Below are positions 36,876-50,609 of a stretch of 64,000 nucleotides of DNA, piece after piece. Numbering within the stretch: position 1 is the first letter of the stretch; each line of letters opens with the position of its first letter. The stretch covers positions 1-64,000 of the forward strand of contig JAGAKR010000022.1 in NCBI GenBank assembly GCA_017625535.1, read 5' to 3'. Under the pieces are notes generated by a model. That model was given only the letters and a program-made list of their open reading frames with translations, had not been told where the DNA came from and made no database searches. The translations under genes and the position numbers were made by a program. The stretch comes from Bacteroidales bacterium (GTDB taxonomy: Bacteria > Bacteroidota > Bacteroidia > Bacteroidales > UBA932).

Positions 36876-36899
36876 CAGGTTGGCCGGACGGCCAACCTG
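36876..36899. terminator. Repeated hairpin, copy a
   Basis: Arms CAGGTTGGCC and GGCCAACCTG, loop GGAC. It lies 7 bp after the sirtuin stop and 7 bp from the stop of the convergent gene, so it likely terminates both. One of five copies of the same arms in this window. Confidence 0.75.
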
Positions 36900-36905
36900 T
36901 TCTTG

Positions 36906-37568
36906 TTATAGACTATTGAACATTTCTTCCTCAGAAAATGGGTTTTCCTCACCAAACAACCGGAGAATTTCCTGTTTTGACAAACTGGATGGGTAATTGA
37001 CATAAGGCATTGAATCTATATGTCCAAGAAGTTTGCCAATATACCTTAGCAATTCATATTCTTCAATTGTTGTTGATTCAACATCCTTTGATTTTGCCAC
37101 ATATCTGTCATCAAATGTCAGACTTGTCCAATATTTCACGCCACTTACAATAGTGTGTCCTATAGTGTTTATCCTAACTTTTGTCTCCTCAGGAGATACG
37201 GAAATCAAATCAATTGCAAGTTCATAATGCTGACGCGGATTTGGAGCAGATTCCCGTCTGTTTTTATTTCTATATGTATAGACATAAGAATACTTTGCAG
37301 GCACTATATCTCTCAATATTAAAGAATCCCCATCATAATCCATCATTCTCAAGCCCTTGAATTTACCATAATAGCCAATATGCAATATGCATTCCCTTAT
37401 ACTATCTATTGGAACAGGGAACGTATATTCGGTAGGGTTAGTACCAACATAGTCTATCCGTACAATATCCGACTCCTGATAGGTCCTGTAAATTCCATAA
37501 AGAATATATATGACAAGCAGGCAGGAAAGACAATACAATATCTTTTTAAAAAAAATATTTAATTTCAT
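36906..37568 (-). CDS. Hypothetical protein with N-terminal membrane anchor
   Basis: A 220-residue protein I cannot assign. A basic N-terminus leads into one hydrophobic helix (about 9-27); the rest is predicted periplasmic and mixed alpha/beta (segments TEYTFPVPIDSIRECILHIGYYG and EETKVRINTIGHTIVSG). No cysteine or catalytic motif stands out. It lies 73 bp downstream of the 216-residue exported protein of the duplicated module and has no counterpart in the other copy. AT-rich, with codon usage unlike the housekeeping genes around it. Confidence 0.6.
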   Translation of the reverse strand: MKLNIFFKKILYCLSCLLVIYILYGIYRTYQESDIVRIDYVGTNPTEYTFPVPIDSIRECILHIGYYGKFKGLRMMDYDGDSLILRDIVPAKYSYVYTYRNKNRRESAPNPRQHYELAIDLISVSPEETKVRINTIGHTIVSGVKYWTSLTFDDRYVAKSKDVESTTIEEYELLRYIGKLLGHIDSMPYVNYPSSLSKQEILRLFGEENPFSEEEMFNSL

Positions 37569-37641
37569 AAGCTTTAACTATTATATCCTTGAAGCCAGTT
37601 ATCAAAAATTTGTTCTAAAGCAATGCATGTCTTATCTGAAT

Positions 37642-38292
37642 TTATCTCTTAAATTGTTTCAGTTTTCTTTGTCCTCTTCGTTTATCCATTTTCTCTTTCA
37701 CTACTTTAGTGTGCTTTATCCATTCCTGCTTGTCATTATCATCCCAAAAGATTGTCTTTTCCCATTCCTTTCTCATATCCTCTACCTGGTATAGCTTGAT
37801 TTTACCATCAGGATGTTTCTCCGCCAAATCAATAACATAAATAGTCCTTTTTATTTTCTTTCCATCCGGCATTCTGTGAAATAGCAAAGATCCGATATAA
37901 TCTCTCGCATCTCCATAATCCAGATCCTTTATATCATCCCAATATAAGCATTCAACAATATTTAAGAAAGAACTGTCTTTGAGAAATGTCTTGTGTTGGT
38001 CTTTAGGGTTTATGGCTGACTCATAAGCTTTTGGCTTTATCATATAGAAGTGCCATAATCTCCAAAGACAAACATCTTTTGATTGGACATACAATTGAAA
38101 GATTTGAACTGAATCTTTATAATTGTCACTAACATAGGTTGTACGTACAGCGTATTCTGTCCTTTCAGATAAATCCTTTATCTTTTGCGCTCCTATAATT
38201 ATGTATATTCCATCTTTATCTTGCGCTTTGATATCAGTTGTAGTTAATATAACTAAAATAGTCATTATCAGCTTAATGTACTTTTTTATCAT
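37642..38292 (-). CDS. Exported protein of the duplicated HExxH-lipoprotein module, copy 1
   Basis: A 216-residue protein with a signal peptide (cleavage after IKAQ) and no recognised domain. It is clearly homologous to the product of 43956-44603: both have RLWHFY, KPK, KDQH, KDSSFLN, YW(D/E)DIKD, RTIY, GKIK-YQVE and a basic C-terminal tail with DKRR. Conserved Trp, His and Cys positions suggest a defined fold. It starts 12 bp after the stop of the HExxH lipoprotein, so the pair is co-transcribed. It may be a partner, inhibitor or immunity factor for the lipoprotein, which is inference from linkage only. Confidence 0.65.
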   Translation of the reverse strand: MIKKYIKLIMTILVILTTTDIKAQDKDGIYIIIGAQKIKDLSERTEYAVRTTYVSDNYKDSVQIFQLYVQSKDVCLWRLWHFYMIKPKAYESAINPKDQHKTFLKDSSFLNIVECLYWDDIKDLDYGDARDYIGSLLFHRMPDGKKIKRTIYVIDLAEKHPDGKIKLYQVEDMRKEWEKTIFWDDNDKQEWIKHTKVVKEKMDKRRGQRKLKQFKR

Positions 38293-38304
38293 ATCCGTGT
38301 TATT

Positions 38305-39894
38305 TTAATATAAGTTATTATTCTTTAGGTATTCAATAATAGAGACTTGGTTATCAATATCTAAATTTTCAAATTCTTTTGTTCTTGTAAGACTCCCCCA
38401 TTTTGCCTTTTCTGCATCTAAATTTGGCGCCACAGTTCTGATCATATCAGCTATTTGACTCAGATAGTTTCTAGCGAAAAATTCATGCTGCATTTCATTT
38501 TGATCATTTCCCCATAAACTATAACAGTAATTCATTCCAGGAATAGCTGTTTCTATTGTACTTGCGGAAGCTCCTTTTAGCATCGCGTAAATATTCAGAT
38601 GAAGTATTTCATGATATATAATTACTTTTTGAATGGCAGGATTAAGTGAATTAAAATCATAGCTGAATATGATTTTATATGGATTCCCGGCAAAAGCATT
38701 ATTGAGGCTGAATACACCGGCTGCAATAAGCCGTAATGTATCTGAGAAGGAGAGCTCAATCTCAATATTAGCATCTTCTACATTGGCAATAATTTCATCT
38801 ACTAAGGAGTTCTCAGTATCAAGCACATTTTGAAATGTAGCATTGAAAGAAGTGTTATTTGTCCAATTGATATTTAGAGAACTTGAACTGTTGTTGCTGT
38901 TGCCATTACCTCCGCCACCGGTTTGACATTCTCCATTACACCCAAGTAAGTGACAATAACTACACCCCGTACCAGGATTATCTTCAGGAGTGCATGTACA
39001 TATCAAAGAACCTGTGCTGAGACAATTACAATTGCCACCAGTACAAGTACAACCGCTTCCTCCTCCTTCATCACCTTTTGGCCACTCTCCGTCTACTAAT
39101 ACATCATCCAAAAATTCAGACTCGTCAAGACATTCTGCACATATATGGCCATAGTCAGGATATACATCTCCTGTTTTTCCGCACATATAACACACTCCAA
39201 ATATTGTACCTCCTCCGGCGGCTCTGGTTGTGAGTGATTTTACAAAACGGATACCTTTATAGTAACCTGCTGGGGATTCCGAATCGTCTGTCTTAAGGTA
39301 CATTACTGTACGCTCCCCGTTTATGTACTGGAAGATGTTAAGTATTTTCCCTGACACAGTAGATACTATCATAAATCCGGTAAAGGTTTCCCTGCTTCCC
39401 ATATAGCTGAATGCAGCACTTGATGTGTTACCTCCAGAATCATTGCCTACAATGGTGGCCATTATCTGGCGTCTGGTCCTTTTATCTCCCTGCTCAAATT
39501 CTTGGATAATCAGAGAACTGCTCATCTTGGCCGCTTCCGATGCATGATTGCCGTTTTTGAGCAATATTCCACCAATGCCGGCATCCATTTTCAGCGGAAC
39601 CTCATAGGTTCTGGCAATTTTGTCGGGGAAGCGGATTTCATGATATTTTGCATTTTCCCACAGAGGCTCATATTCTACTCCGCTATAGGACCTTGATTTG
39701 GAAAGTGGTGCAGATGATGGCATCTTAAAGTTGGTTGAATTCTGCAAGGAGTACTCCTTGGCCTGTTGAAGTGAAAATTGTTGATTTTCTGTGCTGTCCA
39801 GAAAATCGGCCTCACATGCAGTTATGACAAACATCACTAGAATGAGAATAACTGCAGGAGGCATCAATAGGTGTCTGATGCGTTTTCTTCTCAT
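38305..39894 (-). CDS. Cys-rich surface lipoprotein with C-terminal HExxH metalloprotease-like motif, copy 1
   Basis: A 529-residue lipoprotein: signal ending VITAC, a leader-proximal segment rich in Ser/Gln (to about 75), a central beta-rich domain, then a Cys-rich stretch starting with CYMCG and CAEC, which could form a zinc ribbon, and continuing with several CxC pairs and a Gly/Ser/Asn linker. The C-terminal 130 residues contain YHEILHLN, a zinc-protease HExxH, followed about 40 residues later by QHEFFARNY, a possible third ligand region. No known peptidase family is evident to me. The first 58 codons and the upstream region are nearly identical to those of the broken copy at 43384. Confidence 0.65.
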   Translation of the reverse strand: MRRKRIRHLLMPPAVILILVMFVITACEADFLDSTENQQFSLQQAKEYSLQNSTNFKMPSSAPLSKSRSYSGVEYEPLWENAKYHEIRFPDKIARTYEVPLKMDAGIGGILLKNGNHASEAAKMSSSLIIQEFEQGDKRTRRQIMATIVGNDSGGNTSSAAFSYMGSRETFTGFMIVSTVSGKILNIFQYINGERTVMYLKTDDSESPAGYYKGIRFVKSLTTRAAGGGTIFGVCYMCGKTGDVYPDYGHICAECLDESEFLDDVLVDGEWPKGDEGGGSGCTCTGGNCNCLSTGSLICTCTPEDNPGTGCSYCHLLGCNGECQTGGGGNGNSNNSSSSLNINWTNNTSFNATFQNVLDTENSLVDEIIANVEDANIEIELSFSDTLRLIAAGVFSLNNAFAGNPYKIIFSYDFNSLNPAIQKVIIYHEILHLNIYAMLKGASASTIETAIPGMNYCYSLWGNDQNEMQHEFFARNYLSQIADMIRTVAPNLDAEKAKWGSLTRTKEFENLDIDNQVSIIEYLKNNNLY

Positions 39895-39931
39895 AGAAAT
39901 TATGTTTTTAAGTTATGTTCTGGCAAGATAC
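39720..39931 (-). repeat. Inverted 212-bp repeat, arm 1 (promoter plus lipoprotein leader)
   Basis: Matches 43347-43558 in opposite orientation with eight differences that I could count over 212 bases (about 96%). It spans the core promoter, 5' leader and first 58 codons of the HExxH lipoprotein; similarity then drops. Confidence 0.9.
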
Positions 39932-39955
39932 AAAAAAATATCTGACTGTTGCAAA
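39923..39955 (-). promoter_or_regulatory. Promoter of the HExxH-lipoprotein module, copy 1
   Basis: Minus strand TTTG (39952-39955), 21 bp, TATCTTGC (39923-39930). The -7 deviates from TAnnTTTG in its last two bases; the same variant occurs before the GLPGLI gene, and TATCTTAC in copy 2. Confidence 0.55.
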
Positions 39956-39970
39956 TACCGATAAAGCACA

Positions 39971-39996
39971 ACAGGTTGGCCATCCGGCCAACCTGT
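39971..39996 (-). terminator. Repeated hairpin, copy b
   Basis: Arms ACAGGTTGGCC and GGCCAACCTGT, loop ATCC, 11 bp past the stop of the phosphoesterase gene (40008). Confidence 0.7.
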
Positions 39997-40007
39997 CTTT
40001 GTTTTTA

Positions 40008-41894
40008 TCAATACTCCAGTACCGTTACTATTCCGTCCATTGTACTTACCAGCAGCCTGTTCCCTTTCAATGGCTGTATGTAGTTTATTAGGGCAAATGA
40101 GACTTTGTGTTTCCAGGCAATTGAGCCGTCGGAGTGGTTGAGGGCAACAATGTTGCCTTTGTCTGTAGGGACAAATACCAGTCCTTTGTCCTCTTTGCCG
40201 CCGTATGGTACAGAGGTGATTGGGGTTGGGGCAATCTCATAGCCGAACTGGGCATTTGAGCCCCATTTTTTCTGCGGTGCAGTGCCTTCAATCTTTGTTG
40301 TGAAGGCATATACTGAGTCCTTCATTACCTTCACATAGTAGTGTTTGCTGTCGGGAGAAAGGCCTACTGATTCACGGCCTCCGCGGATTCTCCAGAGTTG
40401 TTTTCCGGTTTTGGCATCAAGGCCGTAGGTTACCCTCTCCGGAGTTGCAAAGATTATGTTGCCGTTGGCTTTGATTGGCCATACAGCTGCCGGTGAGAGC
40501 ATCCTGCTTCCTTTCACTTTCCATTCCCACTGCAGTTTGCCGTTTGTAGGGTTGAATGAGTAGAGCCTGTTGGCCCAGTCACCTATCACTACCTGCTCTT
40601 TATCCACGTATGGTTTTGCCTCTATGAAGCCCTTCACATCCTTGTTCTCCCAAATGAGTTTTCCGGTTTTGGCATTCAGGGCCCTGAAGGTGTGGTCTGA
40701 TGCCCCAATATATACTTTTCCTCCAAATACTGTAGGGGAGCCCAATACAGATTTTCCGCATTTGTATTTCCAGTTCACCTTGCCGTCCTTTATCCTTAAT
40801 GAATATATGTATGTATCGCAGGATCCTATTATTACAGATGCTGCATCACCGCTTCCGTAAACTGCAGGGGTTGAGAATACCTTGCCGTCTGTCCTGTATT
40901 TCCATATCTCATTGCCTGTGGCGGCATCAAGTGCATATACTATTCCCGATGTATTTGCATATACAACATATTTTCCACTCTGCACTGCAGCGGCTCCAAT
41001 GTCTGTATTGTCTGTACGTCTCCATACCTGTTTTACATTGGGCCAGTTTTCGTTCATTGAGAAATCGGGCCTTGGATACTCTATGTTTGTCTTGAACGGC
41101 TTGCCCTCGCTCATTCTGAGTGTGAACCAAGGGGTGCTTGTAATCTGCGGTTCTACAACCCTCTCCTGGAATGTTATTGTAGAGCCTTTTACCTTTACAA
41201 TATTGTATCCGGGGCCGCGTTTTCCGGCTTTCTGTGTAGAACGGCCAATCATACCAGGTATACCCTCATATACCATTGCACGATCCTGATGCCAATGCCC
41301 GTTCATAATGAGTTGGGTATTCATGTTTTTAAGGATGTCCAGCACCTGGGTATAGTTGAGCACAGATGTATCCATAGGATAGTGGTTTATGAATACCAGC
41401 GGCTGGGCAGGGTCAATTGCCTTTGAGAGGGAATCCAGCCATACTATTGTCTCCCTTGGGACAAGTGCAGGGGCCATCCTCATATTAGGGCCGCTGTTGC
41501 ACCCCACAAAACGGATACCGTCTTTCTCAAAATCAAACATCTCATACCCGAACACCTCAAGGAAGGTGTTGCATCCGCTCTCAGACCATTTTGCATCGTG
41601 GTTTCCTGCAACTATGTAGTATGGGATTGTAAGTTCATCAAAAATCTCCTTTGCAAGTTTTATCTCCTCATCAGAACCGAACTCGGTAATGTCACCCGCA
41701 AGGATTGCAAATGAGAGCCCTTTCTGGTTATTGATGTCCGCTACACATTTTCTGGCATCATCCACAGAGCCGGAACCTACGGAAATATGCACATCCGATA
41801 GATATGCAAACGAAAAATCCTGTGCATAAGCACCTGCTGCCAAGCATATTGCAGCAAGCAGCACAAGCAGTCTTTTTGTAAATGTCCTTAACAT
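40008..41894 (-). CDS. Calcineurin-like phosphoesterase fused to PQQ-type beta-propeller
   Basis: A 628-residue exported protein with signal peptide (1-24). The N-terminal metallophosphoesterase (about 28-260) has the full metal-binding set: YLSDVHI, AGDITEF, AGNHD, NHYPMD and NGHWH. From about residue 300 onward there are PQQ-like repeats (for example VYALDAATGNEIWKYRTDG and YGLDAKTGKQLWRIRG) forming a propeller. It is probably a periplasmic phosphoesterase whose propeller binds a partner or substrate. It is divergent from the dehydrogenase gene, and I see no pathway link. Confidence 0.88.
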   Translation of the reverse strand: MLRTFTKRLLVLLAAICLAAGAYAQDFSFAYLSDVHISVGSGSVDDARKCVADINNQKGLSFAILAGDITEFGSDEEIKLAKEIFDELTIPYYIVAGNHDAKWSESGCNTFLEVFGYEMFDFEKDGIRFVGCNSGPNMRMAPALVPRETIVWLDSLSKAIDPAQPLVFINHYPMDTSVLNYTQVLDILKNMNTQLIMNGHWHQDRAMVYEGIPGMIGRSTQKAGKRGPGYNIVKVKGSTITFQERVVEPQITSTPWFTLRMSEGKPFKTNIEYPRPDFSMNENWPNVKQVWRRTDNTDIGAAAVQSGKYVVYANTSGIVYALDAATGNEIWKYRTDGKVFSTPAVYGSGDAASVIIGSCDTYIYSLRIKDGKVNWKYKCGKSVLGSPTVFGGKVYIGASDHTFRALNAKTGKLIWENKDVKGFIEAKPYVDKEQVVIGDWANRLYSFNPTNGKLQWEWKVKGSRMLSPAAVWPIKANGNIIFATPERVTYGLDAKTGKQLWRIRGGRESVGLSPDSKHYYVKVMKDSVYAFTTKIEGTAPQKKWGSNAQFGYEIAPTPITSVPYGGKEDKGLVFVPTDKGNIVALNHSDGSIAWKHKVSFALINYIQPLKGNRLLVSTMDGIVTVLEY

Positions 41895-41934
41895 ATTTGA
41901 TTGTTTTTTGTATTGGCTTTTGTATATATACCTA

Positions 41935-41961
41935 CAAATTTACTCTTTTTTTCTAACTTTG
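41935..41961. promoter_or_regulatory. Divergent -7 elements for the phosphoesterase and dehydrogenase genes
   Basis: Minus strand TAAATTTG (41935-41942) serves the phosphoesterase gene; plus strand TAACTTTG (41954-41961) serves the dehydrogenase gene, 26 bp before its ATG. Neither has a clear TTTG at ideal spacing. Confidence 0.5.
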
Positions 41962-41987
41962 GAGCCGGTAAAACACAACAGAAAAGT

Positions 41988-43277
41988 ATGTACAGCAGAT
42001 TGGCAGAAAAGAAAGGAAGCATTGCGGTAATAGGATTGGGCTATGTTGGATTGCCATTGGCCCTTGAACTTGCAAAGAACTTTAAGGTTATAGGATTTGA
42101 CATAAACAAGAACAACATTTCCCTGCTCAACGGGCATACAGATCCAAGCCGCGAACTTGGACCTGAGGCTTTTGAAGGCTCGGACATCATATTTACAGAC
42201 AATCCTTCGGCATTGGATGAGGCGGTTTTCTTTATTGTTGCTGTACCTACCCCAATAGACAGCCACCGTGCGCCTGATCTTGCACCTCTGCTTGGAGCCA
42301 CCAGAACAGTTGCGGCACACCTTAAAAAAGGTGATTATGTAGTTTATGAATCAACTGTATTCCCGGGCTGCACAAGGGAAAGGTGTGTGCCGGTACTGGA
42401 GGAACTGAGCGGAATGAAAATGGGGGAAGATTTCTATGTGGGATACTCTCCAGAGAGGATAAACCCAGGCGATGTACAGCACAGCCTGCAGAATACAATG
42501 AAGATTGTATCTGCCTGCTGCCCACAGGCACTTGAAAACATTGCCAAAGTATATGAGAGGGTTGTAAAGGCAGGTGTGCACAAGGCCCCTACACTTGAGG
42601 TTGCGGAGAGTGCAAAAATTATGGAGAACACCCAGAGGGATGTGAACATTGCCCTTATGAATGAGTTCTCAATCATATTCGGCCGTATGGGGATAAACAC
42701 ATACGATGTCCTTGAGGCTGCCGGAACCAAGTGGAACTTCCTCAAGTTCTACCCCGGCCTTGTAGGCGGGCACTGCATAGGTGTGGATCCGTACTATATG
42801 GTGTACAAGGCAAACGAGATGAACTACCACCCTCACGTAATACAGAGCGGACGTTTTGTAAATGACTCTATGGGCGGTTACATTGGCAAGCACACCGTAA
42901 AGAAAATGATTGCAAACGGTATCTCCCCAATTGGTGCCAGGGTACTTGTACTGGGCATAACCTTCAAGGAGAATGTTGCAGACACCCGCAACTCAAAAGT
43001 GGCGGACATTGTAAAGGAACTAAAAAGTTTCAGCATAGAGGTGGATGTGGTGGACCCTCACGCAGACCCTGCAAAAGTTGAATGGGAATACGGCATAAAG
43101 ATGGCCTCTGCCCCACAAGGCAAATATCAGGCAGTAATAGCAGCCGTATCACATAAGGAGTATGAGAACCTTACGGAAGAGGATTTTGCACAATGGCTTA
43201 ATCCCGACGGCATACTCGTGGACATCAAAGGGAAATACAAAGGAAAGATATCCAGGTTCGGATACTGGAGTCTATAA
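41988..43277 (+). CDS. Nucleotide-sugar dehydrogenase (UDP-HexNAc 6-dehydrogenase type)
   Basis: 429 residues from the ATG at 41988, just after the -7 element; the in-frame ATG at 41901 would place the promoter inside the gene. Rossmann motif VIGLGYVGLPLAL, central PTPID, VYESTVFPG, and the catalytic Cys motif GGHCIGVDPYYM are intact. It closely resembles WbpO/TviB enzymes that oxidise UDP-N-acetylgalactosamine to the uronic acid for capsule or O-antigen. No other polysaccharide gene is adjacent, which is unusual for this family. Confidence 0.9.
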   Translation: MYSRLAEKKGSIAVIGLGYVGLPLALELAKNFKVIGFDINKNNISLLNGHTDPSRELGPEAFEGSDIIFTDNPSALDEAVFFIVAVPTPIDSHRAPDLAPLLGATRTVAAHLKKGDYVVYESTVFPGCTRERCVPVLEELSGMKMGEDFYVGYSPERINPGDVQHSLQNTMKIVSACCPQALENIAKVYERVVKAGVHKAPTLEVAESAKIMENTQRDVNIALMNEFSIIFGRMGINTYDVLEAAGTKWNFLKFYPGLVGGHCIGVDPYYMVYKANEMNYHPHVIQSGRFVNDSMGGYIGKHTVKKMIANGISPIGARVLVLGITFKENVADTRNSKVADIVKELKSFSIEVDVVDPHADPAKVEWEYGIKMASAPQGKYQAVIAAVSHKEYENLTEEDFAQWLNPDGILVDIKGKYKGKISRFGYWSL

Positions 43278-43282
43278 AATTA

Positions 43283-43309
43283 AACAGGTTGGCCGCCGGC
43301 CAACCTGTT
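43283..43309 (+). terminator. Repeated hairpin, copy c
   Basis: Arms AACAGGTTGGCC and GGCCAACCTGTT, loop GCC, followed by GTTGTTTT; just after the dehydrogenase stop. Confidence 0.78.
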
Positions 43310-43323
43310 GTTGTTTTAGGATA

Positions 43324-43355
43324 CTTGCAAAAGTTGTACAGTTTTTGTATCTTAC
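43324..43355 (+). promoter_or_regulatory. Promoter of the HExxH-lipoprotein module, copy 2
   Basis: CTTG (43324-43327), 20 bp, TATCTTAC (43348-43355). It is homologous to the copy 1 promoter and probably still drives the intact downstream gene at 43956. Confidence 0.5.
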
Positions 43356-43558
43356 CAGAACATAACTTAAAAACATAATTTCTATGAGAAGAAAACGCAT
43401 CAGACACCTAATGATGCCTCCTGCAGTTATTCTCATTCTAGTGATGTTTGTCATAACTGCATGTGAGGCCGATTTCCTGAACAACTCAGAGAATCAAAAA
43501 TTTTCACTTCAACAGGCCAAGGAGTACTCCTTGCAGAATTCAACCAACTTTAAGATGC
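43347..43558 (+). repeat. Inverted 212-bp repeat, arm 2
   Basis: Counterpart of 39720-39931 in opposite orientation. It ends at the ATGC where the internal deletion of the lipoprotein gene begins. Confidence 0.9.
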
Positions 43559-43952
43559 ATTTATTGGTGAAGATTATACGATATGGTTTAGAAGCAATAT
43601 ATCTTTATTAAGTTCATCTGCCCAAAAAGTTATAGTATTACACGAAATGCTTCACTTGAATATTTACGCCAAATTAGTAGGAGAAAATAGGAGTACGCTT
43701 GGTAATGTTCTTCCTAATTTTAACCAGTACTATATTGAAAATGAAGAAAATTTTAATGAAGCATCCCATGATTTTTTTGCTGCAAACTATTTAGATGAAA
43801 TAGCTAATATTATAAGTAGCCTACTGGGTGGTTCTGAGATTGATAAAATAAAATGGAGCAGTCTTACTGAAACTGAGGCATTTAATAATTTGCCAAAGGA
43901 TCAGCAAGAGAGTATAATAAATTATTTGATAATAAACGGTTTTTATCTATAA
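43384..43952 (+). pseudogene. Broken copy 2 of the HExxH surface lipoprotein
   Basis: The first 58 codons match copy 1 almost exactly (lipoprotein leader VITAC...). The sequence then jumps, after ATGC, to the region equivalent to copy 1 residue 400, in another reading frame, so the first frame ends at 43611. In the shifted frame the tail continues to the natural stop at 43952, with VLHEMLHLN in place of copy 1's YHEILHLN and the same ending (SLTETEAF...). Copy 1 has ATGC at one deletion edge and AATGC at the other, pointing to deletion of roughly 1 kb between short repeats. The central and Cys-rich domains are lost. Confidence 0.85.
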
Positions 43953-43955
43953 AAT

Positions 43956-44603
43956 ATGAAAAAGTTATATTTGATATTAGTGCTATGTCTAATAATTCCA
44001 AGAATAAAGGTATTTTCTCAAGATGAGAACGGATTATATTTTGTCGTAAAATCTGAATATAAGTCAAATGAAGGAAGTGTGTTAGGCAAAGTGATAAAAA
44101 GTAAGTATTTTGATAATACTTATTTTGCGTATCGGGATAGTGTAATTATTTTTAATGCATATTTAACAACAAGTGATAACCCAATATTAAGATTGTGGCA
44201 CTTTTATTTGGTTAAACCTAAATTAGGTAAAACAAAAATTGAGTCTAAAGATCAACACCGGGTGTATTATAAAGATAGTTCATTCTTAAACTCTGTTGAT
44301 TGTATATATTGGGAAGATATAAAGGATATGATACGCATAGATTTTAAGGAATATTTAGGACCTGAATTGAGAAATAAAATGCTTAATGAAAATAAAATGC
44401 AGCGGACAATATATCTTGTAGATTTATCGGAAAAGGAGCCAAATGGGAAAATAAAGATTTATCAAGTTGAAGATGTTATTAGACAATGGCACACAGGACC
44501 TCATATAGAAGGAGAAGAAGAGCGGGCCCAATATATGAAAACGGTAAAGGAAAAGATTGATAAACGTAGAGTTGAAAGGAAAGCAAAAACATTCAAGAAA
44601 TAG
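43956..44603 (+). CDS. Exported protein of the duplicated module, copy 2
   Basis: A 215-residue protein with a signal peptide (cleavage near VFSQ), intact and homologous along its length to the product of 37642-38292. Shared motifs include LRLWHFY, KDQHR, KDSSFLN, YWEDIKD, RTIYLVDLSEK and YQVEDV. It begins 3 bp after the broken lipoprotein frame. Very AT-rich. Its frame has been kept while its partner gene has decayed, which would suit a role independent of the partner, such as immunity or inhibition; this is inference. Confidence 0.65.
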   Translation: MKKLYLILVLCLIIPRIKVFSQDENGLYFVVKSEYKSNEGSVLGKVIKSKYFDNTYFAYRDSVIIFNAYLTTSDNPILRLWHFYLVKPKLGKTKIESKDQHRVYYKDSSFLNSVDCIYWEDIKDMIRIDFKEYLGPELRNKMLNENKMQRTIYLVDLSEKEPNGKIKIYQVEDVIRQWHTGPHIEGEEERAQYMKTVKEKIDKRRVERKAKTFKK

Positions 44604-44616
44604 TTTGTAAAATGAG

Positions 44617-44641
44617 ACAGGTTGGCCGTCGGCCAACCTGT
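44617..44641. terminator. Repeated hairpin, copy d
   Basis: Arms ACAGGTTGGCC and GGCCAACCTGT, loop GTC, between the convergent stops at 44603 and 44666. Confidence 0.75.
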
Positions 44642-48516: not shown

Positions 48517-48833
48517 AACGGGCAAAAATATATATAGATGATATTTTTTGTGGAATACTTACTGAAGGTCCAGACGGCTATGGATTCAAATATACACCTG
48601 AATATCTGGCTATGAATAATGCAAAACCTGTAAGTCCTACAATGCCTCTCCAGAACGAGGAGTATGAGAAGGAAATAATGTTCCCGGTTTTTGACGGGCT
48701 GATTCCTGAAGGCTGGATGCTTGATATAGTGCATAATACGTGGAAAATAGATCCAAGGGACAGAATGTCTTTGCTGTTGGCATGCTGTAAGGATTGTATA
48801 GGTAATATTAGTGTAAGAAGCTATGATGATTGA
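48513..48833 (+). CDS. hipS: HipS-like protein (HipA N-terminal subdomain as separate gene)
   Basis: A 106-residue protein corresponding to the N-terminal subdomain 1 of HipA (the couple_hipA region), with TPEYLA and the segment MFPVFDGLIPEGWMLD typical of that domain. In the HipBST system of enteropathogenic E. coli the equivalent free protein is the antitoxin for the HipT kinase. Gene order hipB-hipS-hipT and overlapping starts and stops are the same here. Assigned by domain and order, not by experiment. Confidence 0.8.
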   Translation: MKRAKIYIDDIFCGILTEGPDGYGFKYTPEYLAMNNAKPVSPTMPLQNEEYEKEIMFPVFDGLIPEGWMLDIVHNTWKIDPRDRMSLLLACCKDCIGNISVRSYDD

Positions 48834-48834
48834 A

Positions 48835-49800
48835 ATGGAAAACAAGTGTTTATATTGTTATAGAGAATTAAAGAAGGGGGAGGCAGGATATCATGCTTCG
48901 TGCGCTTCCAAACTGTTTGGGAGCACAAAGGCACCCGTAATGCCATACTCCAGAAACAATATTGGAGATCTCGCACTTGAGATTCTGAAGTCAAGGACAT
49001 CCGTTACAGGTGTACAGCCCAAGTTATCATTGGATATAAATAAAGGTGCAAAGAATGAACCCGACCGCCTTACAATTGTGGGGCTATGGGGTAATTACAT
49101 ACTTAAGCCGCAAAGCCCAAAATTCAATTCTTTGCCAGAATTGGAGGATCTTACAATGAAGATGGCTTCTGCAGCAAAAATTGAAACGGCTGTACATGGT
49201 CTGATACGGATGTCAGACGGTGAGTTGGCCTATATTACCAAAAGGATGGACAGGAAAAGCAATGGCGCCAAAATTTCAATGCTGGATATGTGCCAATTGA
49301 GCAACAGACTCACAGAGCATAAGTATCTGGGGACATATACACAGTTGGCAGACATAATAAAAAGATATTCTGCAGTTCCTGTTTTGGATATACAGCGCTA
49401 TTGGGAAATAGTCATTTTCTCATGGATTACCGGTAATTCCGATATGCACTGCAAAAATTTCTCCCTTATGGAAAGGGACGGGATAGGTTATACTTTATCT
49501 CCCGCTTATGATTTGCTTGCTGTTCTATTGACAGGAATAGATGACAAAGATGAACTTGCCATGCCATTGACGGGATATAACTTTGAAAGCGACAAGAGTT
49601 TCTTGGGCTATAACAGAGCATCTTTTTTGGAAGCTATGGCCATTAGCGGGATAGACTCCGTAATAGCCAATAAACTTATTGGCAGGATGATAAAAAACAG
49701 AAGTAAATGGTTTGAATTGATAGAAAGTTCATTCTTGTCATTATCTTTAAAATATGCATATAAAGAGTTGATTGACGACAGGATAGAAAAATTGGGCTGA
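48835..49800 (+). CDS. hipT: HipT-like Ser/Thr kinase toxin with N-terminal zinc-finger-like motif
   Basis: About 321 residues from the ATG at 48835 (alternative ATGs at 48823 and 48826 overlap hipS). Kinase features: Gly-rich loop SVTGVQPKLSL (56-66), the catalytic loop ITGNSDMHCKNFSL and the metal-binding LSPAYDLL. The N-terminus has Cys5, Cys8, His20 and Cys23 in a zinc-finger-like arrangement before the kinase. HipA kinases inactivate aminoacyl-tRNA synthetases and cause dormancy; HipT of E. coli targets TrpRS. The target here is unknown. Compact kinase lacking the N-subdomain, which is encoded by the preceding gene. Confidence 0.85.
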   Translation: MENKCLYCYRELKKGEAGYHASCASKLFGSTKAPVMPYSRNNIGDLALEILKSRTSVTGVQPKLSLDINKGAKNEPDRLTIVGLWGNYILKPQSPKFNSLPELEDLTMKMASAAKIETAVHGLIRMSDGELAYITKRMDRKSNGAKISMLDMCQLSNRLTEHKYLGTYTQLADIIKRYSAVPVLDIQRYWEIVIFSWITGNSDMHCKNFSLMERDGIGYTLSPAYDLLAVLLTGIDDKDELAMPLTGYNFESDKSFLGYNRASFLEAMAISGIDSVIANKLIGRMIKNRSKWFELIESSFLSLSLKYAYKELIDDRIEKLG

Positions 49801-49804
49801 GATT

Positions 49805-49851
49805 GATATAAAGCAACAGGTTGGCCGCTGGCCAACCTGTTGCTTTATATC
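49805..49851. terminator. Repeated hairpin, copy e (22-bp stem)
   Basis: Copy of the same core extended to a perfect 22-bp stem (arms 49805-49826 and 49830-49851, loop GCT). It begins 5 bp after the hipT stop and includes the batE stop codon (49845-49847), so it terminates both convergent units. Confidence 0.85.
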
Positions 49852-50609
49852 ACCTCAACATCATTCATCTGCATCCACCCCTGTCTTCCGTCCGAGATCT
49901 CTATGCGGCACCATTTGCCGGCCTCTTCCAGAATTTCAACCTTTGAGCCTTCATGCAGGATGAACAGGTTGTTTCCCGTAGCATTTGGGGCACTCTTCAC
50001 ATTGCTCACCGGCACCATTACAATGGCTTCATCCTCACTGTTGGCATTTGCCCTCAGATTGGCTGCAAAAATTACTGCAAAGATTGCAAAGAGGAACACA
50101 ATGCAGGCCATTACAAAAGAGAACTTGCGCTGGCCGGTTGTAGGGGCAAACTTGAACAGCAGCATAAGCAGTGCAACAACCGCAAACAGTGCCACCGAAA
50201 CATATGCCCATCCGTTTGATGAAATCATATTGCGTATCTCCTTTATCCAGGTGGAAAGGATGAACTCCGGCACCACCTCTATTTTGTCAAGTGTCTGCAA
50301 CCTTGCAATCTGCAGGTTTGTCTTTGCATCCTCCCCGGCAGGATTGAGCTTAAGGGCCTTCTCATAATAGAGGATTGCCTTGCCCATACTGCCTGTCTTG
50401 TAATATGCATTGCCTATATTATAGTACAATTTGTATGAATGCACCCCGTTCTCCTCTATCTTAAGGTAATCATTGAGGGCTGTCTCATACTGCCCCATAG
50501 AGTAGGCATCATTTGCACTGTTCCACAACAGGCCGTTGCTGTTGGCGCTAAGGTTAACAGCAATCATAAGGCACAATGCCACAAAAACATATTTTATCTT
50601 ATGGTTCAT
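49845..50609 (-). CDS. batE: BatE: TPR and SH3 aerotolerance protein
   Basis: A 254-residue protein: signal peptide, TPR repeats (about 25-105), two transmembrane helices (about 135-155 and 165-185) and a C-terminal bacterial SH3 domain (about 195-254). It is the last gene of the bat operon, one base after batD. Bat proteins form a membrane complex linked to aerotolerance in Bacteroides fragilis; the molecular role is unsettled. Confidence 0.88.
   Translation of the reverse strand: MNHKIKYVFVALCLMIAVNLSANSNGLLWNSANDAYSMGQYETALNDYLKIEENGVHSYKLYYNIGNAYYKTGSMGKAILYYEKALKLNPAGEDAKTNLQIARLQTLDKIEVVPEFILSTWIKEIRNMISSNGWAYVSVALFAVVALLMLLFKFAPTTGQRKFSFVMACIVFLFAIFAVIFAANLRANANSEDEAIVMVPVSNVKSAPNATGNNLFILHEGSKVEILEEAGKWCRIEISDGRQGWMQMNDVEVI

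What the first reader, a model, noticed from the sequence alone, without database searches (positions are those of the whole stretch)
36876..44641. Inverted duplication of an undescribed two-gene module: HExxH surface lipoprotein plus small exported partner
Two divergent copies occur on opposite strands (38292-39894 with 37642-38292, and 43384-43952 with 43956-44603). Seen directly: a lipoprotein signal, Cys-rich region and HExxH in the first gene, and strong motif conservation between the two partner proteins (RLWHFY, KDSSFLN, YW(D/E)DIKD, YQVE). I recognise no family for either. A secreted metalloprotease-like protein with a tightly linked, duplicated small partner fits a toxin/immunity, protease/inhibitor or surface-antigen system; which one is inference.
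Basis: partly seen in the sequence, partly recalled or inferred. Interest (0 to 1): 0.8.

Follow-up and report, generated by a model that had tools for sequence, protein, structure and literature searches.

The report
Lipoprotein toxin cassettes with swappable ends
A Bacteroidales bacterium carries what look like lipid-anchored protein weapons whose business ends are swapped between relatives, each next to a matching protection gene; one copy here looks complete and the other has lost its weapon but kept its protection gene.

Summary
The features are real but are not a simple inverted duplication of a two-gene module. Copy B (43384-44603, plus) is a broken lipoprotein gene, in two pieces in different reading frames, followed by an intact partner.

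The lipoprotein belongs to a modular family without a Pfam or NCBIfam name, found in 29 of 299 sampled genomes of its taxonomic family. The N-terminal region is shared and the C-terminus is swapped: the window's HExxH type, a second HExxH-like type, C39-like, JAB-like, M23 and others. In the 24 effector-type loci examined the next gene looks exported, and its family tracks the C-terminal type (28 of 28 same-family pairs; 0 of 100,000 shuffles). The third gene is 46% identical to the gene behind a different C-terminus in a relative: a probable orphan immunity gene.

Best reading: a lipoprotein polymorphic toxin/immunity system acting in the envelope. Toxicity, delivery, protease activity and fold are untested (structure prediction was off). 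A lipobox/cystatin-like toxin system published in 2025 may be the same; this could not be tested.

The parts
36876..36899 (.). palindrome P1, terminator-like, outer end of module A
   Evidence: one of only five exact-stem copies found in the 2.18 Mb assembly (88.6% complete)
36906..37568 (-). third gene, 220 aa, membrane-anchored/exported; probable orphan immunity gene
   Evidence: 46% identical to the gene directly behind the lipoprotein with a different C-terminus in L004/L068; found in 3 of 388 family genomes including this one
37642..38292 (-). partner A, 216 aa, exported; proposed cognate immunity protein
   Evidence: 12 nt behind the lipoprotein gene, signal-like N-terminus; 42% identical to partner B
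38305..39894 (-). lipoprotein of 529 aa; proposed polymorphic toxin, copy A, open throughout
39814..39894 (-). signal peptide and lipobox Cys27 (VITAC, then EADFLD)
   Evidence: the Cys column is kept in 12 of 13 aligned rows, window included; the 13th row lacks the N-terminus
38926..39813 (-). conserved N-terminal domain and Cys-rich zinc-ribbon-like region (aa 28-323), ending in the motif CSYCHLLGCNGEC (38926-38964)
   Evidence: the closing motif is present in 20 of 42 N-domain ORFs
38308..38865 (-). variable C-terminal HExxH-1 domain (aa 344-529); HEILH at 38599-38613, candidate third ligand Glu467 of the NE motif at 38494-38496
   Evidence: no Pfam or NCBIfam hit and no convincing PDB sequence hit
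39972..39995 (.). palindrome P2, upstream end of module A
43285..43307 (.). palindrome P3, upstream end of module B
43384..43611 (+). copy B, N-terminal piece (59 codons like copy A, then out of frame, stop)
43560..43952 (+). copy B, C-terminal HExxH-1 piece in another reading frame (ORF listed as 43647-43952)
43956..44603 (+). partner B, 215 aa, open; proposed immunity gene kept behind a broken toxin gene
44618..44640 (.). palindrome P4, downstream end of module B
49817..49839 (.). palindrome P5, next to the TPR/SH3 gene 49845-50609, which in G011 and G007 lies directly beside the metallophosphoesterase gene

Best explanation
The locus holds two cassettes of a lipoprotein polymorphic toxin/immunity system. 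A constant lipoprotein N-terminus with a Cys-rich zinc-ribbon-like region carries a swappable C-terminal effector to the cell envelope; here the effector is a HExxH (zincin-like) domain. By contact or by outer-membrane vesicles the effector reaches the envelope of a competing cell and damages it there. The exported gene directly downstream encodes the immunity protein that protects the producer and its kin. The third gene is an orphan immunity gene against a different effector type, and copy B is a cassette whose toxin gene has broken while its immunity gene was kept. Shown: modular N/C architecture, C-type-specific exported-looking neighbour genes, orphan and tandem neighbour genes, mosaic divergence of copies A and B. 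Inferred: toxicity, proteolysis, surface display, delivery route, neutralisation.
For: (a) The first ~350 residues match proteins in 12 of 39 same-genus genomes (own included); outside the own genome no listed match goes past residue 349. The N-domain profile matches 29 of 299 family genomes, own included. (b) C-termini of relatives: C39-like (Pfam PF13529, 1.3e-5 in L072, above cut-off; 1.5e-4 in L092, below), M23 (PF01551, 1.8e-12 in L095); JAB-like with H-x-H..S-x2-D (weak Prok-JAB, best 0.0013, in 2 of 7); a second HExxH-like type. The JAB, C39 and second-HExxH groups hold up in leave-one-out HMM tests among the tails (members 2.4e-7 or better, best non-member 0.01). (c) 24 of 24 effector-type loci have a closely spaced downstream gene with a signal-like N-terminus (gaps -44 to +24 nt). 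(d) Neighbour family tracks effector type: 28 of 28 same-family pairs, 0 of 100,000 shuffles. All 7 JAB-type loci examined are followed by a Pfam DUF6705 gene above cut-off. (e) Tandem copies: 4 in L082, 4 in L092, 3 in L078; orphans: two DUF6705 genes in L069 downstream of a non-JAB head and the window's third gene. (f) In A versus B the HExxH piece and the partner have diverged equally (44% and 42% aa) while the 5' end is 95% identical in DNA.
Against: No toxicity or neutralisation is shown. The HExxH-1 head and its partner co-occur only in this genome among those searched, so their pairing rests on two copies, one broken. Distant partner relatives in G121 and G083 stand without a detected HExxH-1 head. 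12 of 42 N-domain ORFs examined end in an InlB-like repeat or nothing, with no effector domain, so the N-domain is not used only for toxins. A shared neighbour family was found for 7 of 7 JAB loci but only 3 of 8 second-HExxH and 3 of 5 C39 loci, and those three C39 loci are close relatives. The export rule is loose: it also passes 160 of 295 background ORFs. None of the 24 effector-type ORFs fits the published C-X-K-(D/E)2 surface signal strictly; the 7 rows that do are short or truncated members. No fold was obtained.
Confidence: 0.77

Rival explanations
1. Lipoproteins with swappable enzyme or binding heads used on nutrients or host material rather than on competitors; the neighbour is a periplasmic inhibitor or chaperone that keeps the head inactive during export.
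For: N-domain proteins also occur without effector heads, ending in InlB-like repeats (PF18998), next to large exported-looking genes without a Pfam hit or O-antigen-ligase genes. An inhibitor for an exported protease would also be exported and co-diversify.
Against: Does not predict orphan and tandem copies of the neighbour without the matching head or retention of an intact partner behind a broken head (copy B).
Confidence: 0.13
2. Surface antigen under diversifying selection, with the small gene an anchoring or assembly partner.
For: Lipoprotein features and lineage-restricted variability.
Against: C-termini fall into unrelated groups, several enzyme-like (C39, M23, JAB-like, HExxH), not variants of one domain, and the neighbour changes with them.
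Confidence: 0.04
3. A decaying mobile or genomic-island remnant: copies A and B are passengers of a recombination hotspot, with no present function in this strain.
For: Copy B is broken; the palindrome brackets both modules; G011 and G007 have the site without the module. L067 and L094 also carry N-domain genes split over two frames, which could be decay or assembly error.
Against: Copy A's three genes and partner B are open over their full lengths, and third codon positions differ most between the copies (74 of 129 and 121 of 212 codons), as expected under coding constraint in the past.
Confidence: 0.06

Closest known systems
Lipobox + cystatin-like N-domain polymorphic toxins (PMC12419801; section 29 read whole; passages)
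   Same: Lipobox N-terminus fused to several different C-terminal toxin domains, including a papain-like one, each coupled to an immunity gene that seems to act at the membrane or periplasm.
   Different: Organisms and sequences of this subsystem are not named in the text read; the other heads listed there (lipocones, ColM-like, START-like, VanY-like) were not recognised here. Whether our N-domain has a cystatin fold could not be tested (structure prediction off). It could be the same system.
APD1/APD2, Microscilla-N and MAFB-N lineage-specific N-domains (PMC3482391, passages)
   Same: Constant lineage-specific N-terminus after a signal or lipobox, highly polymorphic C-terminus; Tox-JAB-1 with an exported immunity protein (Imm65) in Bacteroidetes; polyimmunity loci.
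   Different: APD proteins are predicted there to be aimed at a eukaryotic host; these N-domains were not available for a sequence comparison here.
SitA/SitI of myxobacteria (PMC5562445 outline and section 9; PMC8546572 passages)
   Same: Polymorphic lipoprotein toxins with a constant escort domain, a modular C-terminus and a linked immunity gene.
   Different: SitA heads are typically nucleases acting in the cytoplasm after outer membrane exchange in Myxococcales; here the recognisable heads are peptidase-like and the proposed immunity genes look exported.
TANFOR polymorphic toxins of Bacteroidetes (PMC7073777, outline and section 6)
   Same: Bacteroidetes, constant N-domain, variable toxins, downstream immunity.
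   Different: No TANFOR hit among NCBIfam results; heads there include nucleases, peptidoglycan hydrolases and ADP-ribosyltransferases.
BSAP antibacterial lipoproteins of Bacteroidales (PMC12853789, passages)
   Same: Surface-exposed lipoproteins of Bacteroidales that kill relatives.
   Different: BSAPs are MACPF pore formers; no MACPF hit for the window lipoprotein.

Membership tests
polymorphic toxin systems | conserved N-terminal trafficking region with variable C-terminal domains | tested here: met
polymorphic toxin systems | C-terminal domains belong to known toxin classes | tested here: inconclusive
   C39-like and M23 by Pfam in relatives, JAB weak; the window's own HExxH-1 domain matches no library searched
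polymorphic toxin systems | linked downstream immunity gene specific to the toxin type | tested here: met
   (comparative association only, no protection assay)
polymorphic toxin systems | orphan or tandem immunity genes | tested here: met
   (by homology)
polymorphic toxin systems | toxicity neutralised by the cognate immunity protein | not testable with these tools
   needs bench work
zincin-like metallopeptidase (window C-domain) | HExxH plus a third zinc ligand | tested here: inconclusive
surface lipoprotein with export signal (LES) | lipobox Cys followed by X-K-(D/E)2 | tested here: not met
   window EADFLDS and all 24 effector-type ORFs fail the strict pattern; looser acidic signals of other Bacteroidetes were not modelled
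SitA | TraAB-dependent outer membrane exchange, Myxococcales | not tested
   no TraAB or SitA search was run; the order is Bacteroidales by the titles of two same-genus records
TANFOR toxins | TANFOR domain | tested here: inconclusive
   no such hit in NCBIfam; that the library holds a TANFOR model is recalled, not checked
BSAP | MACPF domain | tested here: not met
   no Pfam hit at E up to 1 for the window lipoprotein
lipobox/cystatin-like toxin system (PMC12419801) | cystatin-fold N-domain | not testable with these tools
   structure prediction switched off; no convincing PDB sequence hit to the N-domain, only weak zinc-ribbon-type hits

The most novel reading that the evidence does not exclude
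A previously unnamed, lineage-specific lipoprotein weapon of Bacteroidales. A constant N-domain and Cys-rich stalk, in this genus usually ending in a C-x2-C-x4-C-x-G-x-C motif, carries interchangeable envelope-acting peptidase heads. DUF6705 is the immunity family for its JAB-type heads. In this lineage cassettes accumulate at one chromosomal site as inverted pairs bracketed by a palindrome found nowhere else in the assembly, which may be where cassettes recombine.
Probability: 0.33. Interest if true: 0.75.

Novelty: new variant of a known kind. Interest (0 to 1): 0.62.

Why it matters
It adds a candidate contact or vesicle weapon for Bacteroidales, beside T6SS, BSAPs and TANFOR toxins. It gives a testable function (immunity to JAB-type toxins) to Pfam DUF6705 and proposes immunity roles for several unnamed families. 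The recognisable heads are peptidase-like and the neighbour genes look exported, which points to targets in the envelope rather than nucleic acids. It also gives one locus where an intact pair, an orphan immunity gene and a broken toxin with a kept immunity gene sit within 8 kb.

Tried and rejected
Simple inverted duplication of a two-gene module: rejected, because copy B is a mosaic with a broken lipoprotein gene.

HExxH-1 and the second HExxH-like type as one family: profile comparison gave 2.6% probability (E 0.018) over 23 columns around the motif, and an apparent link vanished when low-complexity linkers were trimmed. Likewise a merged neighbour cluster separated when the first 28 residues were trimmed.

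Phage or plasmid origin: no match of the window lipoprotein in 72,556 plasmid records, of its relative in L007 in 50,697 phage records, or of the partner in viral contigs. Partner in genome contigs: no relative. These scans may leave out the window's own genome. Not run: window lipoprotein against phages, partner against plasmids.

Anti-phage defence: PADLOC gave nothing for the window proteins, only a weak JAB hit in L082 (0.0079). PDB hits of the C-domain (retron effectors) were at E 0.32 or worse and taken as chance. PHROGs gave one weak tail-protein hit for L068 (0.003) and one of unknown function for partner B (0.0056); not followed.

O-antigen ligase as a required partner: a Wzy_C-type gene lies near the N-domain gene in 12 of the 35 fetched loci that hold one (clusters; Pfam confirmed for L071 and L063, L069, L084, L096, weak for L088), but the window's assembly has none (88.6% complete). 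L064 and L065 share closely similar neighbour genes, so they are not independent.

HipA (48823-49800), the TonB-type gene and UDP-glucose dehydrogenase near the modules: treated as neighbours, not parts.

Not in print: no paper found for DUF6705, for Bacteroidales + surface lipoprotein + immunity gene + polymorphic, or for lipoprotein toxin + Bacteroidota + interbacterial + immunity; broader searches gave the comparators listed (only the top rows of each list were seen). Only open-licence PMC papers are searched.

Changes after the filing check: closing motif restated as 20 of 42 ORFs, short members recounted as 12 of 42, surface-signal fits shown to be absent from effector-type members, G013's TPR gene confirmed; confidence lowered slightly for the surface-signal result.
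Full report
What is there. Copy B on the plus strand holds a 75-aa ORF (43384-43611), a separate 101-aa ORF (43647-43952) and an intact 215-aa partner (43956-44603). No Pfam, NCBIfam, PADLOC or PHROGs model matches these convincingly.

Copy B is a mosaic and its lipoprotein gene is broken. Its first 59 codons, with 42 nt upstream, are a 95-96% DNA match to copy A; then everything up to about 27 residues before HExxH is absent, and the rest lies in another reading frame. The C-terminal piece (129 codons) and the partner (212 codons) have diverged equally: 44% and 42% identical in protein, 56% in DNA for each. So a head and its partner have diverged together, while the 5' end is shared and recent. 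This is what cassette exchange onto a common N-terminus would leave; the exchange itself is inferred.

The N-terminus is constant and the C-terminus is swapped. The whole lipoprotein matched proteins in 12 of 39 genomes of its genus (own included), but outside the own genome no listed match passed residue 349. A profile of 13 N-terminal regions (A1) matched 29 of 299 sampled family genomes in 7 of 25 genera and 4 of 393 genomes sampled across the order, one of them the own. In 13 of the 14 loci (window included) the protein has a C-x2-C-x4-C-x-G-x-C motif, in 12 of them at the start of the variable part and in L017 near its end; L016 lacks it. Over the wider set it is present in 20 of 42 N-domain ORFs, and in 9 of the 24 effector-type ORFs, so it marks this genus more than the family. 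Behind the shared part come: HExxH-1 (window A and B only), a PLC/S1-like head by eye only (L068), C39-like heads (PF13529 at 1.3e-5 in L072), an M23 head (PF01551 at 1.8e-12 in L095), JAB-like heads, and a second HExxH-like type in which the first His is often replaced. The JAB, C39 and second-HExxH groups were drawn by eye and then held up in leave-one-out HMM searches among the tails (members 2.4e-7 or better, best non-member 0.01).

Counts. One search examined the window and 37 fetched loci; L059 and L060 hold no N-domain gene, the other 35 and the window hold 42 N-domain ORFs. I class them as 24 effector-type, 12 short (InlB-like repeat PF18998 or nothing), 5 remnants or ORFs cut by contig ends, and 1 that is the N-terminal half of the split gene in L067. 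Of the 51 matches, six (L008, L009, L010, L012, L013, L017) were seen only and are of the short type, and two (G027:C3, G013:C47:147) were not examined. The three order-level relatives were not examined.

The neighbour gene tracks the head. In 24 of 24 effector-type loci the next gene has a hydrophobic, signal-like N-terminus and lies -44 to +24 nt away. The rule is simple and also passes 160 of 295 background ORFs, which include these genes; the L086 neighbour is cut by the contig end. All seven JAB-type loci examined are followed by a DUF6705 protein above Pfam's cut-off. Pairs of loci sharing a neighbour family share the head type in 28 of 28 cases; none of 100,000 shuffles reached 28 (largest 25). 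Relatedness lowers the weight of this: 21 of the 28 pairs are JAB loci, and the three C39 loci that share a neighbour are close relatives. For second-HExxH heads only 3 of 8, and for C39 heads 3 of 5, share a detectable neighbour family.

Orphans and arrays. The window's third gene is 46% identical to the gene behind L068's different head and was found in 3 of 388 family genomes (this one, G013 at 83%, G008 at 48%). L069 carries two DUF6705 genes downstream of a non-JAB head. Tandem copies occur in L082 (4), L092 (4) and L078 (3). These are marks of immunity genes like those described for polyimmunity loci (PMC3482391, passages).

The site. Eight relatives were fetched at the metallophosphoesterase gene. 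In G011 and G007 the Sir2 gene is followed after 32 and 34 nt by the metallophosphoesterase gene and then by the TPR/SH3 and BatD genes; in G020, G037 and G024 other genes lie between Sir2 and the metallophosphoesterase; G008, G006 and G019 are rearranged or cut there. In the window module A lies between the first two genes, and UDP-glucose dehydrogenase, module B and further genes lie between the metallophosphoesterase and the TPR gene. That the short arrangement is ancestral is inferred. A perfect palindrome (CAGGTTGGCC, 3-4 nt, inverse) occurs five times in this assembly, all here: at both ends of module A, both ends of module B, and beside the TPR gene. It was absent from 8 of 9 relatives searched; the ninth, G013, has one (5-nt loop) between its TPR-gene homologue (70% identical) and its third-gene homologue (83%). 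In G013 two contigs end inside the partner gene with 283 nt 99% alike, one coming from the Sir2 side and one from the TPR side, which suggests an inverted pair of partner copies at the same site there too. In G008 the metallophosphoesterase and dehydrogenase genes have the opposite orientation relative to the TPR gene, as if the segment between inverted copies had flipped. The palindromes also look like two-way terminators, so a recombination role is a guess.

Mechanism. Export by Sec and lipidation at Cys27 are read from the sequence. Surface display is inferred: the published C-X-K-(D/E)2 signal (PMC5080379, passages) fits 7 of 31 rows, but all seven are short or truncated members, and no effector-type ORF fits it strictly. 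That the head then reaches another cell's envelope, cleaves something, and is blocked by the exported partner is inferred from the architecture and from precedents (SitA, APD, lipobox/cystatin-like systems). The HExxH of both copies is followed 35 residues on by a conserved Glu, a spacing found in many zincins (recalled), but with two sequences and no fold this is a lead.

Against. The HExxH-1 head with its partner is seen only in this genome. The partner profile matched 5 of 398 family genomes (own included): G013 with 66-aa ends at contig edges, two distant genes in G121 and G083 without such a head detected, and a weak partial match in G391 (E 9.8e-4). Short family members without heads show that the N-domain has other uses. 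No activity is shown.

Novelty. The general kind, a polymorphic toxin with a lineage-specific lipoprotein N-terminus, is known. The nearest text, PMC12419801 section 29, describes lipobox proteins with a cystatin-like N-domain and several envelope-acting heads; it may be the same system, and I could not test that. I therefore file this as a new variant of a known kind.

Noticed in passing
window 36876, 39972, 43285, 44618, 49817: A 23-24 nt perfect palindrome was found only at these five places in the 2.18 Mb assembly, bracketing both modules; one copy in G013, none in 8 other relatives searched.
   Followed up: partly
L059, L060 (G013 contig ends): Two contigs of a same-genus genome end inside the partner gene with 283 nt 99% alike, from opposite sides of the same chromosomal site, suggesting an inverted pair there too.
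   Followed up: partly
L122 (G008): The metallophosphoesterase and UDP-glucose dehydrogenase genes are flipped relative to the TPR gene, as expected from an inversion between inverted 5' copies like those in the window.
   Followed up: partly
L058, L063, L064, L065, L068, L069, L071, L073, L084, L088, L094, L096: An O-antigen-ligase-like (Wzy_C) gene lies near the N-domain gene in 12 of 35 fetched loci that hold one, though the window assembly has none.
   Followed up: partly
L066, L067, L069, L082, L087, L089, L090, L093: Pfam DUF6705 follows each of the 7 JAB-type heads examined and occurs as extra copies in L069 and L082; no paper in the library names it.
   Followed up: partly
L063, L064, L065, L070, L073, L084, L085, L091, L097: Short N-domain members without a head, ending in InlB-like repeats or nothing; several sit beside 850-880 aa exported-looking genes (one scanned, no Pfam hit) or small genes that look TonB-C-like by eye.
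   Followed up: no
window 48823-49800: HipA_C domain gene (PF07804, 1.5e-41) in the palindrome-bounded stretch next to module B.
   Followed up: no
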